Shown here one piece after another: positions 5,600-63,847 of a DNA stretch of 64,000 nucleotides. The stretch spans positions 1 to 64,000 of IMG/VR virus record IMGVR_UViG_3300037193_000639; one strand, 5' to 3'. The first letter of the stretch is position 1, and every line of letters begins with the position of its first letter. The stretch comes from a virus. Below the pieces are notes generated by a model, which worked only from the letters and a program-made list of their open reading frames with translations, ran no database searches and had not been told where the DNA came from. The position numbers and the translations under genes are program-made.

Positions 5600-6141
5600 T
5601 GCTGCTCCTTAAATTTCTTTCTAGCTTCTTCAAACGAAATTGGCGTGTAGTTGATTTGTTCGACGCTGACACAGAGGTATCGTGGGTCGTATGTATCACC
5701 ATACTCCCTGTGCCAATCAATGTATTCTACCCTACTACTATGCAAATGCCCGTGAATATTTCCACCACACCATCTAGCCAAGCTTTTAGGGTGAATTGGA
5801 ATATGCGTCAAGATATAGTTATCAAGCTTATGGCTTCCACGGACATCTTTGAAATACGGTGTGTACTCCTCAAGCCGGAAGATATCGTGGTTCCCACGAA
5901 TGAGAACTTTTTCACCGTTCAGCCTGCCACAAATTTGCAGAGCTTTCCGATTAATCACAACATCCCCGAGATGATACACCTTATCCTTTGGCCCTACCAC
6001 TTTGTTCCAGTTTGCTACAAGAGCCTCATCCATCTCTTCCACATTACCCCAAGGACGGAGTTTTGAGCCGTCATTGTTGAGGAATTGTGTGACGCCTTTG
6101 TGTCCGAAATGTGTATCGGAAATCAGGAAAACGTTCGACAT
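5596..6141 (-). CDS. Calcineurin-like metallophosphoesterase
   Basis: All five metal-binding blocks are present in 181 residues: DTHFGH (9-14), GDV (59-61), GNHD (83-86), the His of LTHIPIH (about 113) and GHLH (131-134). This is the minimal catalytic core of the family, which hydrolyses phosphomono- or diesters with two metal ions. The start overlaps the upstream stop (TAATG) and the end overlaps the RNA ligase start, pointing to a shared role, perhaps clean-up of cyclic or 2'/3'-phosphate RNA ends before ligation (inference). Confidence 0.85.
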   Translation of the reverse strand: MSNVFLISDTHFGHKGVTQFLNNDGSKLRPWGNVEEMDEALVANWNKVVGPKDKVYHLGDVVINRKALQICGRLNGEKVLIRGNHDIFRLEEYTPYFKDVRGSHKLDNYILTHIPIHPKSLARWCGGNIHGHLHSSRVEYIDWHREYGDTYDPRYLCVSVEQINYTPISFEEARKKFKEQQ

Positions 6142-6615: not shown

Positions 6616-6635
6616 ACTTCTCATTAGTGAGAAGT
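6616..6635. repeat. Dispersed palindrome TTCTCA-N4-TGAGAA, copy 1
   Basis: Arms ACTTCTCA and TGAGAAGT pair over 8 bp around the loop TTAG. It lies in the 5' leader of the leftward 65-aa gene, downstream of the terminator at 6701-6737. Confidence 0.75.
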
Positions 6636-10093: not shown

Positions 10094-10300
10094 TCAAGGA
10101 ATTTTTGAAATTTCACACTTCTCATTGTTGAGAAGTTTTCGTACTTGCTTCAGGAGAGCTTTTGCTTTGTTGATTTTCTGCAATGTTTCTGAATCGTTCC
10201 TTGCTGAGTATCTTTTTACTATTTGGGAAATCCTTTGTCGGCTGATTGTTTGAAAGCGCTCTGCAATTTCTTCTATAGTCATTTCGTGAATTCGTTTCAT
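10094..10300 (-). CDS. Small helix-turn-helix regulator, first gene of the leftward operon
   Basis: The 68-residue protein has a HTH at about residues 8-31 (TIEEIAERFQTISRQRISQIV), like sigma70 region 4 or resolvase HTHs, followed by a charged helix. It starts 21 bp from a -10 box and 44 bp from a perfect 15-bp dyad that overlaps the -35 of its own promoter. It is therefore a good candidate for a self-regulating repressor or early/late switch; this is inferred from position. Its last codons contain a copy of the dispersed palindrome (10117-10136). Confidence 0.7.
   Translation of the reverse strand: MKRIHEMTIEEIAERFQTISRQRISQIVKRYSARNDSETLQKINKAKALLKQVRKLLNNEKCEISKIP
10117..10136. repeat. 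Dispersed palindrome, copy 2
   Basis: ACTTCTCA and TGAGAAGT pair around the loop TTGT. It encodes residues near the C terminus of the HTH regulator and lies about 77 nt upstream of the next start codon (10040). Confidence 0.75.
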
Positions 10301-10320: not shown

Positions 10321-10349
10321 AGTATAAGCCACTTGTTGCATTTTGTCAA
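10321..10349 (-). promoter_or_regulatory. Leftward promoter of the regulator operon
   Basis: On the minus strand TTGACA (10349-10344) and TATACT (10326-10321) are spaced by exactly 17 bp. The -35 box is one arm of the 15-bp dyad, so a dyad-binding protein would block this promoter. GGAGG precedes the regulator start. Confidence 0.8.
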
Positions 10350-10358
10350 GACTTGACA
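10344..10358. promoter_or_regulatory. Operator-like dyad, site 1
   Basis: TGTCAAG-A-CTTGACA is a perfect 7-1-7 inverted repeat. The surrounding 20 bp (10343-10362) are identical to 13846-13865. Here it lies between divergent promoters and overlaps the leftward -35. Confidence 0.75.
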
Positions 10359-10384
10359 TTTTCATTTGGATGTGGAAATAAATA

Positions 10385-10447: not shown

Positions 10448-10819
10448 ATGAGTAATCTTGTCGTAGTTACACAAGAGGAAAATCCAAGTTTCCTGAAAGA
10501 CAAGATACAACTCCAGAAACTCCTGAAAGATCTTAACAAGGCCAGCAAGGAAGCGCTTGAGATTCTTGTTAATATCATGGAAACAACAAAGGATGAGAAG
10601 CTGAAGGCGCAATGTGCTAAAGACATTCTTCAGTTTACAATTGCAACGAACAAAGAAGTGAATGCCGATCAGATGCAACGTCTGATTGCTGAAATCAAGC
10701 TCAATCGAGCACCACAAGGTAAGCTAATCCCTTTGAATGACCCTGAAGATGTTTCCAGTGGGAAGGGGGTTGGGGATAGGCCGGTGGTCGATTTCTCAAC
10801 CGTGAGAAGTCTTGAATAA
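10448..10819 (+). CDS. terS: Probable small terminase subunit
   Basis: The 123-residue protein is helical with a charged N-terminal region (KDKIQLQKLLKDLNKASKEALEIL) and an extended C terminus. It is the first late gene and the last protein gene before the tRNAs and TerL, the usual TerS place. No HTH motif is clear, so the call rests on size and position. A dispersed-palindrome copy overlaps its last codons. Confidence 0.6.
   Translation: MSNLVVVTQEENPSFLKDKIQLQKLLKDLNKASKEALEILVNIMETTKDEKLKAQCAKDILQFTIATNKEVNADQMQRLIAEIKLNRAPQGKLIPLNDPEDVSSGKGVGDRPVVDFSTVRSLE
10793..10808. repeat. Dispersed palindrome, copy 3
   Basis: TTCTCA-ACCG-TGAGAA lies in the last codons of the terS-like gene, 11 nt before its stop and about 28 nt before the first tRNA. 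Confidence 0.7.
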
Positions 10820-11523: not shown

Positions 11524-12096
11524 GTGTGTGATGTTGGTATAAGTCCGGTTAGGCACAAAATTTATGAGGACGGGAAGAGAACACGAGGCTACTCTGTGTG
11601 GCACAGTATGTTAAATAGGGCCTATAACTTGAAACGGACTGCGGGTAAGAAGGCTTATGAAGGCGTCGCCGTTTGCGATGAGTGGTTGTCAGGGGATGTG
11701 TTTATTGATTGGTGTGAGAAACAAGTTGGATTTTCTGACCCATTGTTTCAACTTGACAAAGATATCTTAGTGAAATGGAATAAGATTTACTCACCAAAGA
11801 CATGCGTGTTTGTACCTCGTGAGATTAACTTAGCAATTACTAGAAGTGACTCTAGCAGGGGTGAATTTCCTATAGGTGTTTCTTGGAGTCATAAATCGGA
11901 AAAGTTTGGGGCCTATTTAAGTGAGTTTGGTAAACTTAGATACCTCGGAATGTTTCCAACACCAGAGGAAGCTTTCTACACATATAAGTCAGCTAAAGAG
12001 AAGTATTTAAAAGTTCTTGCTGACAAATATAAAGATGTCATAGACCGCAGATGTTATGAAGCTCTTTGTGCGTATCAGGTGGAGATAACGGATTAA
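11524..12096 (+). CDS. Free-standing homing endonuclease beside the split TerL gene
   Basis: The 190-residue protein starts with GTG after AGAGGCA. It has the signature GYSVWHSMLNRAYN...YEGVAVCDEWLS...F...W of the phage AP2/HNH-like endonuclease group, and an AP2-like half (FPIGVSWSHKSEKFGAYLSEFGKLRYLGMFPTPEEAFYTY). It ends 2 nt before TerL. The group I intron in TerL has no ORF of its own, so this enzyme is a candidate for mobilising that intron. Family by eye; target inferred. Confidence 0.7.
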   Translation: MCDVGISPVRHKIYEDGKRTRGYSVWHSMLNRAYNLKRTAGKKAYEGVAVCDEWLSGDVFIDWCEKQVGFSDPLFQLDKDILVKWNKIYSPKTCVFVPREINLAITRSDSSRGEFPIGVSWSHKSEKFGAYLSEFGKLRYLGMFPTPEEAFYTYKSAKEKYLKVLADKYKDVIDRRCYEALCAYQVEITD

Positions 12097-12098
12097 AT

Positions 12099-13842
12099 AT
12101 GAGCAAACGAATTTACGGCCCCTGTAGTGAACGTCAACGTCTATTTCTAATGGACACAACAACAGACGTAATTTTGCTTGGTGGTAAACAATCTGCCTCC
12201 AAGGGTAAAAAACAACTCTCTAATTGCTGGAAAATCTCGATGAGACAATCAGCAGCGAAGGTTCTCAATGATGAGAACAACGTTCAACGACTAGCCGAAA
12301 GGCGTACACCTAAGCGGGTGGAAACGGGAGTCTCCTTGACAGGATGAAGATATAGTCTGAACTGCATGGCGACATGCAGCAGCTTTGCAAAAGCGGGGTA
12401 GTAGTAGCGATACTACCTGAACATATTTGGGCGCTGGAGGAGGCAAATCATTCACCTGTCTTACAAAAAACCTAGACGGCTTAGACGATCCATATTTCCG
12501 CTGCACTATCTTTCGTCGCACATACCCAGAGCTTAAACGTCAGGGTGGTTTGATTGACGAAAGCAAGCAAGTATACAGAGATTTTGGTGGTGTCTACAAA
12601 TCACAGGCAATGAAGTGGATTTTCCCAAGTGGCGCAGAAGTTTCGTTTTCTGCTATCTCTTGTGACGATGATCTAGGCTCTTGGCAAGGCTCACAGTTGG
12701 TTCGTGCACTAGTGGACGAAGCTGCAGATAAGTGGACAGAGAAGCAGGTTTTGTTTCTGTTGTCTCGTTTGCGGTCAGCACATTCTAAAATTCATCCTCA
12801 ACTAATTTTGACATGTAACCCAGACATTAATTCGTTCTTGAAGTCTTGGGTGGATTTCTGTTTAGATCCAGACACAGGGGTTCCTGTCGAGGGGACAGAA
12901 AATCGGGTTAGGTGGTTCATTGTTATTGACAATAAGGCACACTGGGCTGATTCCCCTGAAGAGGTGTTTGAGAAGTATGGTAAGCCGCGCAACATGATTT
13001 ATGCACACGGGCTTACTGAGGAAGAAATGAATAGTTACTCTCCTCAAGAACGCCTCCGCTTGTGCATGCCTAAGTCTTTCCGGTTTCTGCCTACCGGAGT
13101 GTTTGACAATCCTTACCTGCTCCCGCCAAGGAACAATAGCTATCTGCCAAACTTGCTGGCACAGCCGTATGTCAACCAGCTTAAGTACCTCCATGGATCA
13201 TGGACGGCTAAGGAAGCTGCAGGAGGCTACTTCAAACGTGAATGGACTCCTATCGTAGATTATCCTCCTGAGAATCCTATCTCCCGTGTTCGCTCTTGGG
13301 ACTTTGCAGCCTCTGAAGAAAGCGTTGCCAATCCCAACCCTGACTGGACTGCAGGGGTGAAGATGTCACGGGATAAGTATGGAATCTATTACATTGAACA
13401 CGTCGAACGCTTCCGTGCAAGAACTGACAAGGTATTGAAAGAGGTTATTGACGTAGCTAAGTCGGATGGTTTGGACGAATGTGGTGTGACCATCCCTAAA
13501 GACCCCGGTGCAGCAGGAGCTACAGCAAATGCCTTCTATATTAGGACGCTTGCAGAAGCAGGGGTAGCAGCTAAATCATGTACGATTTCTGGGCACAGTG
13601 GCAAGGTAACACGTTTCAAGCCATTTGCTGCATTAGCAGAGAGCGGTTCTGTTAGGGTGGTTAGAGGTGATTGGAATGATGCTTTCTTTAATGAGCTAGA
13701 AGAATTCGATGGCTCAAGGGGTAAGAAGGACGACCAGGTGGATGCTGTGTCGGATGCTTTTGCTACTTTGGCAAGACAGTTGCAGATGCCGACGATTGTG
13801 ATCCCTTCTCTGGAACAACCCTCCCCAATTCCAACAGTTTAA
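12099..13842 (+). CDS. terL: Large terminase subunit, split by a group I intron
   Basis: The protein is encoded by exon 1 at 12099-12185 (29 codons, ending ILLGG) and exon 2 at 12430-13842 (470 codons, beginning GAGGGKSF). Splicing restores the Walker A motif GGGAGGGKS in a 499-residue protein. Walker B is ALVDEA. The RNase H-like nuclease half has acidic residues in RSWDFAASEE and DDQVDAVSDA. TerL is the ATP-driven packaging motor and headful/cohesive-end nuclease. The ATG at 12099 follows GGTGGAG. The unspliced transcript would stop in the intron, so intron removal is required for packaging. Confidence 0.9.
12186..12429 (+). ncRNA. Group I self-splicing intron in terL, 244 nt
   Basis: The 5' exon end CTTGGTGGT pairs with the internal guide GCCTCCAAG (12195-12203) over 9 positions with one U.U, and the exon's last U faces G12195, the diagnostic U.G of P1. 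Core elements follow in order: P near 12221 (AATTGCTGG), Q (12246-12260), R (GTTCAACGACTA, 12282-12293) and S (AAGATATAGTCT, 12347-12358). R and S pair as P7 (GACTA/TAGTC). P9-type hairpins close with GCGA tetraloops (12362-12379 and 12401-12416). The 3' end is G12429. P6 is the palindrome GTTCTCA-ATGA-TGAGAAC. No ORF lies inside. Confidence 0.88.
12261..12278. repeat. Dispersed palindrome, copy 4, inside the intron
   Basis: GTTCTCA-ATGA-TGAGAAC, 7 bp, lies exactly between intron elements Q and R, where P6 is expected. Confidence 0.75.
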
Positions 13843-13846
13843 AAAT

Positions 13847-13861
13847 TGTCAAGACTTGACA
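13847..13861. promoter_or_regulatory. Operator-like dyad, site 2
   Basis: TGTCAAG-A-CTTGACA again, 5 bp after the TerL stop and 15 bp upstream of the -35 of the portal promoter. Twenty bp are identical to site 1. Confidence 0.75.
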
Positions 13862-13876
13862 TTTTGAAATAACCTA

Positions 13877-22320: not shown

Positions 22321-23265
22321 ATGGCAAGAAAACGAACCAAAGAAGATTTTTTGATTGAAGCAAGAGAAATTCATGGCGATAAGTATAATTACGACAACGT
22401 GGATTTCACATTTAGTAATACAAAAGTAGAGATAGTTTGTAACAAGGGGCATGGCAGTTTCTGGCAAACCCCATCGAATCATATAATTTGTAAGGCTGGT
22501 TGTCCCGCTTGTGGAGGCTGTGAACGTCCAACAACTGAAAAATTTATCCGGCAAGCCAAAGAAAAGCATGGTGATAAATACGACTACAGCAAATCAGTGT
22601 ACGTTAAGGCGCACCAAAAATTGCTAGTGACTTGTCCAAAAGAAGGACATGGAGATTGGGAAGTAACCCCAGACGCGCACAAGCGCGGAAATGGTTGCCC
22701 GAAATGTGGCGATGAAAGAACTGCGGCATCCCACAGATTAACACAGGAAGAGTTCATTCAAAAAGCTACAGATGTCCATGGCACAAAGTATGACTACAGT
22801 AAAGTAGAATACAAGTGCGACACAGTGAAAGTTTTAATTGGATGCCCAGAACACGGGGACTTTCCATGTACTCCATCTAACCATAAGAAAGGTCGGGGTT
22901 GCCCTAAGTGTGCCAAGAACGGATACAAACGAAGCCAACCCGGAACCTTCTACATCTTAACCTGTGGCAATCTCACAAAGATTGGTATCACAAACCGTAA
23001 AGTACAAGACCGCATTAGGTCTATCAACAAAAGCTCTGGCAAGAAATTTAAAGAGCGTTTTAGCATCTTTCTAACAGACGGCGAAGTTCCATACCAAATG
23101 GAGCAAATTCTTCTACAAGAACTTCGAAGCAAGTACAAACCTGTTGATGAAATATTCGATGGCTCAACTGAATGTTTTCAGGATGTTGATAACGCCTTAC
23201 TTATCGTCAAAGCTGTAACACTCTTCGGAGATCAAAAACTTCTCAGTAATGAGAACAAGCCGTAA
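22321..23265 (+). CDS. Free-standing homing endonuclease, paralogue of that at 18772
   Basis: Three zinc repeats (IHGDKYNYDNVDF, KHGDKYDYSKSVY, VHGTKYDYSKVEY, each ending GCPxC) and a C-terminal GIY-YIG-like domain starting PGTFYILTCGNLTKIGITN give 314 residues. It is inserted between the tail tube and tail chaperone genes. Only a weak AAGTAAG lies before the ATG, and a perfect palindrome lies upstream, suggesting restrained expression. Its last codons contain a copy of the dispersed palindrome. Confidence 0.75.
   Translation: MARKRTKEDFLIEAREIHGDKYNYDNVDFTFSNTKVEIVCNKGHGSFWQTPSNHIICKAGCPACGGCERPTTEKFIRQAKEKHGDKYDYSKSVYVKAHQKLLVTCPKEGHGDWEVTPDAHKRGNGCPKCGDERTAASHRLTQEEFIQKATDVHGTKYDYSKVEYKCDTVKVLIGCPEHGDFPCTPSNHKKGRGCPKCAKNGYKRSQPGTFYILTCGNLTKIGITNRKVQDRIRSINKSSGKKFKERFSIFLTDGEVPYQMEQILLQELRSKYKPVDEIFDGSTECFQDVDNALLIVKAVTLFGDQKLLSNENKP
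23240..23255. repeat. Dispersed palindrome, copy 5
   Basis: TTCTCA-GTAA-TGAGAA encodes residues LLSNEN near the end of the second zinc-repeat endonuclease, 10 nt before its stop region and 80 nt before the tail chaperone. Confidence 0.7.
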
Positions 23266-40674: not shown

Positions 40675-40694
40675 AATTCTCAAGAATGAGAATT
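40675..40694. repeat. Dispersed palindrome, copy 6
   Basis: AATTCTCA-AGAA-TGAGAATT pairs over 8 bp and includes the stop codon of the upstream 161-aa gene; it is 30 nt before nrdB. Confidence 0.75.
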
Positions 40695-48926: not shown

Positions 48927-48942
48927 TTCTCATTGCTGAGAA
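48927..48942. repeat. Dispersed palindrome, copy 7
   Basis: TTCTCA-TTGC-TGAGAA lies between the 47-aa gene and ssb. Confidence 0.75.
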
Positions 48943-49108: not shown

Positions 49109-49124
49109 TTCTCATGGTTGAGAA
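49109..49124. repeat. Dispersed palindrome, copy 8
   Basis: TTCTCA-TGGT-TGAGAA lies 17 nt upstream of the 47-aa gene, in a 37-nt intergenic gap. Confidence 0.75.
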
Positions 49125-51449: not shown

Positions 51450-51616
51450 TATTCGTCCTCTTCGGGGTCGTCATACTCCTTTGGAAGACGCTTTCCTGTC
51501 TGCTCTACAAATTCTTCTTTGATCCAATAATCTTCATCAGTTCCACCGTCAGCGTACCATTCAGCAGCCTTCTTTTGATAAAACCTTAAAAACTCCAACT
51601 CTGTGGCTCGTCTCAT
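51449..51616 (-). CDS. Hypothetical protein, 55 aa
   Basis: Encodes MRRATELEFLRFYQKKAAEW and an acidic tail; the start overlaps the upstream stop and the stop overlaps the next start. No family recognised. Confidence 0.55.
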   Translation of the reverse strand: MRRATELEFLRFYQKKAAEWYADGGTDEDYWIKEEFVEQTGKRLPKEYDDPEEDE

Positions 51617-52041
51617 TCTTCCTCCAATTCGATATCGTAATTATACTCTTCCATAAGACTTCCGTCAAGCAATTCTTCCACCATATCCTGCCCAAGCCTG
51701 TTAAAAGCAATCATCACCTTCCTCCTGTACCAGTCAATCTCTGTAATAGGCATCTTAGCGTACCCATGCTTATACAACCACTCGTACAATTTTCTAGCAT
51801 TGATTCTATAGATGTTTGTCCTTCCCTCTTCTTCAATAAGGAATTTTGCAGGGAAGTCTTTTGGGAACTTCATTGTATATGGAAAAGCAGCAAGAATGCC
51901 ATCCTTCCAATAGTGGCTTTCAATCATGGCTGCAATACAGGCCCCTACAAGACGCTCCCAGTCAACCTTTTTAGGTTTCTTGAGAGTGGCTAGGTAGTCT
52001 TTTCTTGGTTGGCCTCTACGGGGGTTTCTGGGCTTATCCAT
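51613..52041 (-). CDS. Hypothetical protein, 142 aa
   Basis: The ATG at 52041 (MDKPRNPRRGQPRKDYL) overlaps the upstream stop by 8 nt; a longer frame to 52185 lies inside the upstream gene. A basic N terminus is followed by an alpha/beta part (KLYEWLYKHGYAKMPITEIDWYRR). It lies downstream of the polymerase. Family unknown. Confidence 0.6.
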   Translation of the reverse strand: MDKPRNPRRGQPRKDYLATLKKPKKVDWERLVGACIAAMIESHYWKDGILAAFPYTMKFPKDFPAKFLIEEEGRTNIYRINARKLYEWLYKHGYAKMPITEIDWYRRKVMIAFNRLGQDMVEELLDGSLMEEYNYDIELEEE

Positions 52042-52300
52042 ACCAATTATGTGTCTCTGTCCATGCCTCACTCTTAGCACCACAACATTTACACTGATTC
52101 CAATATTCTGTATAGGCTTTGTCGTAATAACTTCCACTGAAGTAACAAGACTTCTTTTCGATTTCAAGATGAGGGCACATCTCATTACGTTTCTTGCGCA
52201 GCTCAGAAGCTTTCAATTTAGCTTCATCAGCCACTTTCATAGCATGCTCTAATTCTGCCTGTACCTGCTCAAACGGTGTAGCAAATAACTCTTGTTGCAT
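52034..52300 (-). CDS. Small zinc-binding-like protein, 88 aa
   Basis: Helical N-terminal half (FEQVQAELEHAMKVADEAKLKASELRKKR) followed by CPHLEIEKKSCYFS and WNQCKCCGAKSEAW, with Cys/His spacing suited to a zinc site. Lies directly after the polymerase gene. Confidence 0.6.
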   Translation of the reverse strand: MQQELFATPFEQVQAELEHAMKVADEAKLKASELRKKRNEMCPHLEIEKKSCYFSGSYYDKAYTEYWNQCKCCGAKSEAWTETHNWYG

Positions 52301-63430: not shown

Positions 63431-63847
63431 TTACGACCTCTCATAGCAAAACATGTGCTCCTCCAACCGCATGCAACTCATTTTCTTTGCCCACTTTGGC
63501 TTCACAATGACATGGTGGAACCATTTTACATTCTCATTCATGAGAACTACTCCAACACCCTCCATCCGCTTCAATAAATCTTTCATTTCGACATTATATT
63601 TCAAAATTGGCTTCTTGTCAAACCATGAAAACTGCCCCGGCTGTGCAATTACTTGACAGACACTCTTCCCTGTTGCTTTTACGCGATTCAATATGACATC
63701 CATCACAGCCCTCTTGCCTACGTCGCTTTGTGTGTTGGCTTCGTAGTAAATTGCAGACACCATGCAACGTTTTTCTGACAGAGCATCCTTTGCAACAGCT
63801 TGAAAGGGAATAATGGAGAGGGCTAGGATGAGAAGACGCTTTAACAT
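63431..63847 (-). CDS. Cell wall hydrolase (SleB/Hydrolase_2 family) with signal peptide
   Basis: A signal peptide (MLKRLLILALSIIPFQAVA, cleavage after AVA) precedes RCMVSAIYYEANTQSDVGKRAVMDVILNRV and AQPGQFSWF, the signatures of the SleB-like lytic hydrolases, where the Glu of YYEA is catalytic. It would act on peptidoglycan from the periplasm. It lies in the early/replication block, away from the late lysozyme. One copy of the dispersed palindrome lies inside the coding region. Confidence 0.78.
   Translation of the reverse strand: MLKRLLILALSIIPFQAVAKDALSEKRCMVSAIYYEANTQSDVGKRAVMDVILNRVKATGKSVCQVIAQPGQFSWFDKKPILKYNVEMKDLLKRMEGVGVVLMNENVKWFHHVIVKPKWAKKMSCMRLEEHMFCYERS
63531..63546. repeat. 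Dispersed palindrome, copy 10, inside a gene
   Basis: TTCTCA-TTCA-TGAGAA encodes residues VLMNEN of the SleB-like protein. It is the only copy clearly in the interior of a gene and may be chance. Confidence 0.5.

What the first reader, a model, noticed from the sequence alone, without database searches (positions are those of the whole stretch)
12261..12278. Dispersed hairpin doubles as the P6 stem of the intron
The same palindrome found at other places fills the P6 position between Q and R. Either the palindrome spread by inserting as a neutral stem, or the intron supplied the element. It links the repeat family to an RNA structure and favours RNA-level action.
Basis: partly seen in the sequence, partly recalled or inferred. 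Interest (0 to 1): 0.7.

Follow-up and report, generated by a model that had tools for sequence, protein, structure and literature searches.

The report
DNA control site inside intron stem
The P6 stem of a self-splicing intron in this phage's DNA-packaging gene has the same sequence as a short palindrome found about ten times per genome across a phage lineage, and the comparative evidence says the palindrome is a DNA site for an unidentified gene regulator that has settled into a free slot of the intron, not an RNA element spread by the intron.

Summary
Window 12261-12278 (GTTCTC-AATGAT-GAGAAC) is the P6 hairpin of a group I intron (12186-12429) in terL. Its core TTCTCA-N4-TGAGAA occurs 9 times in this 75.5 kb phage.

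Six homologous terL introns share the P6 flanks. P6 is the palindrome in three and an unrelated short hairpin in the other three, although all six phages carry the palindrome elsewhere. Many palindrome phages have no intron. The palindrome therefore entered the intron and did not come from it.

Ninety-six sites from 18 phages argue against RNA-level action. Outer pairs do not covary. Core variants keep a G-U pair on the transcribed strand as often as they break pairing (16 versus 17). Exact TTGACA boxes point away from 23 sites (5.3 expected), and eight sites lie between divergent promoter-like sequences. A site stands upstream of terS in 13 phages.

Best explanation: a DNA-binding site for a dimeric transcription regulator, phage- or host-encoded and not identified here; P6 tolerates it because it needs a stem but no fixed sequence. 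Nearest known kinds: the SPbeta repeated element bound by MrpR, and mycobacteriophage L5's dispersed repressor sites. No experiment supports binding yet.

The parts
12099..12185 (+). terL exon 1 (29 codons, ends ...VILLGG)
   Evidence: ATG at 12099; spliced translation gives full TerL
12186..12429 (+). group I intron in the Walker A codons of terL
   Evidence: RF00028 89.6 bits over the whole model; ORF restored on removal; exact splice sites inferred from reading frame and P1 pairing, not measured
12261..12278 (+). P6 stem-loop of the intron; core 12262-12277 is one copy of TTCTCA-N4-TGAGAA
12430..13842 (+). terL exon 2 (GAGGGKSF...)
   Evidence: PHROG 979 terminase large subunit, E 2.3e-139 for 12427-13842
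11524..12096 (+). HNH endonuclease gene just upstream of terL (probable homing enzyme of the intron, inferred)
   Evidence: PHROG 953, E 3.7e-64
6618..6633 (.). palindrome copy, intergenic
10119..10134 (.). palindrome copy near the 3' end of a small HTH-like gene, 329 nt upstream of terS; TTGACA about 22 nt further out, pointing away
10793..10808 (.). palindrome copy in the last codons of the putative terS
23240..23255 (.). palindrome copy at the 3' end of a T5orf172-type endonuclease gene downstream of a tail gene
40677..40692 (.). palindrome copy overlapping the stop codon of the gene upstream of the 326-aa conserved gene; same place in G001
48927..48942 (.). palindrome copy, intergenic
49109..49124 (.). 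palindrome copy in a gap between conserved minus-strand genes
63531..63546 (.). palindrome copy inside a cell-wall-hydrolase gene
5891..5906 (.). one-mismatch copy TTCCCA-N4-TGAGAA
56263..56278 (.). one-mismatch copy TTCTTA-N4-TGAGAA
10448..10819 (+). putative terminase small subunit; its family marks the palindrome phages
   Evidence: conserved next to terL; used as probe; no PHROG or Pfam name

Best explanation
TTCTCA-N4-TGAGAA is a DNA-level binding site for a dimeric, sequence-specific DNA-binding regulator in a lineage of apparently virulent phages (no integrase found). The two half-sites lie 10 bp apart centre to centre, so a dimer could read both on one face of the helix. There are about 10 sites per 85 kb, mostly in intergenic gaps and at gene ends, and repeatedly just upstream of strong sigma-70-type promoter-like sequences and of the terS-terL packaging genes. 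The copy in the window's intron is one of these sites, placed near the start of terL. It sits in P6 because P6 of this intron needs a stem but not a particular sequence, and a palindromic DNA site reads as a stem in the RNA. Shown here: the sites, their distribution, their promoter association, the lack of RNA signatures, and P6 variability. Inferred: that a protein binds, that it is a dimer, that it regulates transcription, and that the intronic copy is functional.
For: Density: 67 full sites in 824 kb of palindrome phages (8.1 per 100 kb) against 0.21 per 100 kb in six related phages. Sequence: both half-sites fixed over genomes of 38-60% G+C while the four central bases differ from copy to copy; this core was also the search criterion, so the evidence for conservation is the excess over control patterns and the variant spectrum. 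Placement: 58 of 96 noncoding or at gene edges against 14.9 expected. Promoters: exact TTGACA pointing outward at 23 of 96 sites against 5.3 expected (largest of 200 trials 12), inward 6 against 5.3; in intergenic-matched controls 17 against 3.9, 0 of 300 trials reached it. 26 sites have a full promoter-like sequence outward, 8 of them on both sides. A site lies 26-390 nt upstream of terS in 13 phages, in a few of them a one-mismatch copy. Against RNA: outer pair 69 Watson-Crick against 67.6 in shuffles; single variants on the transcribed strand 16 G-U against 17 mismatches; compensated doubles 3. P6 swapping.
Against: About 70 of 96 sites have no promoter-like sequence next to them by this scan, 38 lie inside predicted genes, and many follow a stop codon directly with no room for a promoter, which a simple operator does not explain. 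No regulator was identified: the two protein families with the matching phyletic pattern (67001-67909 and 51613-52185) gave no confident DNA-binding fold. One of them has relatives in phages without this palindrome. Base pair 8 is Watson-Crick in all three intron copies with three different pairs, so RNA pairing probably does act on the intron copy itself. No binding or expression data exist. Promoter calls are sequence matches only.
Confidence: 0.7

Rival explanations
1. RNA hairpin element: the palindrome works as a stem-loop in mRNA (processing, stability or protein binding), and P6 is one instance.
For: 25 of 96 sites lie between -20 and +10 nt of a stop codon against 4.2 by chance, about 8 of them using the TGA of TGAGAA as the stop; several lie just before a terminator-like sequence; in the three introns the next outer pair is always complementary.
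Against: No covariation at the outer pair, no strand bias for G-U in variants (16 to 17), almost no compensated doubles, fixed stem sequence with free loop, sites between divergent promoter-like sequences. 80 of 96 have no T-run on either side, so most are not plain terminators.
Confidence: 0.13
2. Host-regulator version of the DNA reading: the phages carry operators of a cellular transcription factor, as CtrA sites in alphaproteobacterial phages. This is a sub-case of the best explanation, which leaves the source of the regulator open, so its confidence overlaps with it.
For: The same palindrome followed by TTGACA recurs in Hyphomicrobiales genomes with a nearly constant spacing of 5, before transporter and catabolic-looking genes; CtrA precedent (PMC9437464).
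Against: The host is unknown; phage spacing is variable; the phages span 38-60% G+C, which makes one shared host factor less likely; the cellular search required TTGACA, so it is biased.
Confidence: 0.2
3. Mobile or copied hairpin (MITE- or GC-cluster-like) that inserted in P6 and elsewhere without function.
For: Dispersed copies and swapping at P6, similar to hairpin elements in mitochondrial genomes (own knowledge; titles).
Against: Central bases all differ within G000 and flanks are not shared, whereas the half-sites stay exact; recent copies would share loop and flanks. Placement is biased to promoters and to the same gene gaps across phages. In G001 most loops are TAAA/TTTA, so some copying there is not excluded.
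Confidence: 0.05
4. Chance: P6 happens to equal the site.
For: P6 stems vary freely in this intron family.
Against: Given a 6-bp stem the chance of TTCTCA is about 3.5e-4, and it is seen in three introns whose bodies are not each other's closest relatives.
Confidence: 0.03

Closest known systems
SPbeta repeated element (SPBRE), bound by the repressor MrpR in Bacillus phage SPbeta (PMC10516654)
   Same: Short conserved element repeated at intergenic/promoter places through a phage genome; first seen in silico, later shown to be a regulator site
   Different: Different sequence (15-bp motif); SPbeta is temperate and the regulator is known; here no integrase was found and the regulator is unknown
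Stoperators of mycobacteriophage L5 and relatives (described in PMC4557955)
   Same: Many dispersed regulator sites across the genome
   Different: Stoperators are asymmetric and bound by a monomer; these are palindromic
CtrA sites in alphaproteobacterial phages (PMC9437464)
   Same: Conserved motif placed in phage promoters
   Different: Bound by a host factor and mostly concentrated in one genome region; here spread over the genome and the binder is unknown
Group I introns of phages, RF00028
   Same: The intron itself is an ordinary member
   Different: P6 carries a site shared with the rest of the genome

Membership tests
Group I intron (RF00028) | matches the family covariance model over its whole length | tested here: met
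   89.6 bits, model 1-253, gathering score 50
Group I intron (RF00028) | removal restores the host reading frame | tested here: met
   spliced TerL open throughout with the Walker A motif restored
Group I intron (RF00028) | self-splicing in vitro | not testable with these tools
   needs an RNA assay
Intrinsic terminator | stem followed by a U-run | tested here: not met
   TTTT within 10 nt on either strand at only 16 of 96 sites; no run follows the intron copy
Stoperator (L5 type) | asymmetric site bound by a monomer | tested here: not met
   the site is an inverted repeat with both halves required in 67 full copies; definition from PMC4557955
Dispersed phage regulator site (SPBRE type) | repeated conserved motif enriched at intergenic and promoter places | tested here: met
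Dispersed phage regulator site (SPBRE type) | bound by a phage-encoded regulator | not testable with these tools
   candidates by phyletic profile only; fold searches inconclusive
Mobile hairpin element | copies share sequence beyond the stem | tested here: not met
   flanks carry 0.01-0.2 bits per position beyond the outer T-A pair; loops all differ within G000

The most novel reading that the evidence does not exclude
The site in P6 is read twice: one sequence serves as a DNA operator and as the P6 RNA stem, and the same regulator (or the regulator and the ribozyme together) ties control of terL transcription to intron splicing.
Probability: 0.1. Interest if true: 0.8.

Novelty: new variant of a known kind. 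Interest (0 to 1): 0.5.

Why it matters
It points to an undescribed regulatory network in a lineage of uncultivated phages whose site is strict enough to search for. It also shows a ribozyme peripheral stem taking up what looks like a DNA control site, so one sequence satisfies a DNA constraint and an RNA constraint at once. The binding protein is a concrete target to find by pull-down.

Tried and rejected
Looking for other dispersed palindromes in the palindrome-free relatives G005, G006, G009, G011, G012 and G013: none stood out. Insertion-type mobility: rejected on loops and flanks. Helical phasing of the TTGACA distances at 10.5 bp: not supported (Rayleigh p about 0.33; other periods fit better, so no claim is made). 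Identifying the regulator by Pfam HTH_3, and lysogeny by Pfam Phage_integrase: none found. Fold searches of the two phyletic candidates gave no confident match; a family that is not listed is not excluded. A scan of viral contigs for the intron with the palindrome in P6 gave only G001 and G003. A literature search for the motif letters gave nothing relevant. Monophyly of the three palindrome-bearing introns: the tree prefers otherwise but does not reject it (p-AU 0.106), so repeated gain is likely but not proven.

Full report
What is there. The window is the first 64 kb of a 75.5 kb phage contig. Its terL is interrupted in the Walker A codons by a 244-nt group I intron, 12186-12429 (RF00028, 89.6 bits); joining the flanks gives an uninterrupted TerL with LLGG|GAGGGKS. 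An HNH endonuclease gene lies just upstream. The intron's P6 is GTTCTCA-ATGA-TGAGAAC at 12261-12278.

The palindrome family. TTCTCA-N4-TGAGAA occurs 9 times in the genome; the next six-base inverted repeats with that gap occur once. TerL relatives in IMG/VR were fetched: G001 has 10 copies and G003 has 8, but six other related genomes have none or one. Two small protein families found almost only in palindrome phages were used as probes; 15 records were then checked (14 new ones and G016), and every one carried the core TCTCA-N4-TGAGA while the reversed control pattern gave zero in each. In total 96 non-redundant sites in 18 phages were studied. The full 12-base site has a density of 8.1 per 100 kb against 0.21 in the six relatives without the family.

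Intron against palindrome. Six homologous terL introns share the frame GCGAAR-[P6]-NACGTTCAACGACTA or a close form of it. P6 is the palindrome in G000, G001 and G003, and CCC-TTGC-GGG in G022, CTACC-GCAA-GGTAG in G029 and CCGC-TATAAT-GGCGG in G015. All keep a stem; none needs a given sequence. All six phages have the palindrome elsewhere. The rest of the G000 intron is closer to those of G022 and G029 (83%) than to G003 (74%) or G001 (69%), and the G001 intron sits about 9 nt further on. Repeated gain is therefore likely, though a tree test does not reject a single origin (p-AU 0.106). Phages without a detectable intron carry the palindrome, so the intron was not the source.

DNA or RNA. Four tests were run. 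First, exact TTGACA boxes point outward from 23 of 96 sites against 5.3 expected, with no inward excess; 26 sites have a promoter-like sequence outward and 8 have one on each side. In those eight the palindrome would lie outside both transcripts. Second, the pair next to the five-base core is Watson-Crick 69 times against 67.6 in shuffles. Third, one-base variants are nearly all transitions in one half-site; read on the transcribed strand they keep a G-U pair 16 times and break pairing 17 times. Fourth, compensated double changes number 3. An RNA stem under selection should show the opposite on the last three. One sign of RNA pairing exists only in the introns: the next pair out is G-C, T-A and A-T in the three copies.

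Placement. 58 of 96 sites are noncoding or at gene edges against 14.9 expected; 25 lie at a stop codon against 4.2. A site lies 26-390 nt upstream of terS in 13 phages, and near the start of terL in G018, in G029 (a one-mismatch copy) and, inside the intron, in G000, G001 and G003. This fits a regulatory site that is wanted near terL and that uses P6 where an intron occupies the spot. That last step is inference. The sites that follow stop codons without a nearby promoter are not explained by a simple operator and may be roadblock or terminator-linked sites; this is open.

What binds. No integrase or HTH_3 protein was found. Two families are present in all seven near-complete palindrome phages and not detected in the six others. 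Their models gave no confident fold match, so they are candidates only. A host factor is possible: the same palindrome before TTGACA recurs in Hyphomicrobiales.

Known relatives. Dispersed regulator sites are known in phages: SPBRE with MrpR (PMC10516654), L5 stoperators and BPs operators (PMC4557955), CtrA sites (PMC9437464). The present sites resemble SPBRE most in layout. They fail the stoperator test because they are symmetric. I know of no report of such a site serving as P6 of a group I intron; the literature searches were limited and open-access only.

Limits. Genes were called by a simple ORF and conservation method, promoters by consensus, and all relatives are metagenomic contigs. 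The core was fixed by the search, so its perfect conservation in the 96 sites is partly by construction; the variant analysis is the independent check. The sense strand of a site was taken from neighbouring genes.

Noticed in passing
L136 (PV388296.1, Burkholderia phage Karil-Mokiny-1, 32823-70144): A different dispersed palindrome, GAAATNATTTC, occurs 9 times in 37 kb, mostly between genes; the phage has a relative of the 67001-67909 protein and one copy lies just after that gene.
   Followed up: partly
L174, L177, L192, L194, L220, L221, L231, L232, L234, L235, L251: Hyphomicrobiales genomes carry TTCTCA-N4-TGAGAA nearly always 5 nt before TTGACA, upstream of transporter and catabolic-looking genes: probably an operator of an unnamed cellular regulator.
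   Followed up: partly
terL of G003 (L033 13435-15885 -) and G029 (L129 13061-15343 +): These TerL ORFs are 816 and 760 aa and seem to hold an intein near the same Walker A region as the intron, so the motif may be a double target.
   Followed up: no
window 22321-23265: T5orf172-type endonuclease gene with zinc-finger-like repeats sits between a tail gene and the next gene, with a palindrome at its 3' end; in relatives the palindrome follows the tail gene directly.
   Followed up: partly
window 10094-10300: Small gene with a sigma-70 region 4-like or HTH motif (weak Pfam matches), present in G003 and a few others, with a palindrome at its 3' end.
   Followed up: partly
G001 (L028-L032): A 12-mer family AGAAGAATACTA occurs about 20 times, suggesting a tandem or dispersed repeat of its own.
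   Followed up: no
window 10343-10362 and 13846-13865: Exact 20-bp direct repeat TTGTCAAGACTTGACATTTT, itself holding two opposed TTGACA-like boxes.
   Followed up: no
L017 (record G012) and L018 (record G013): A group I intron lies at a different site, further inside terL, in phages without the palindrome.
   Followed up: no
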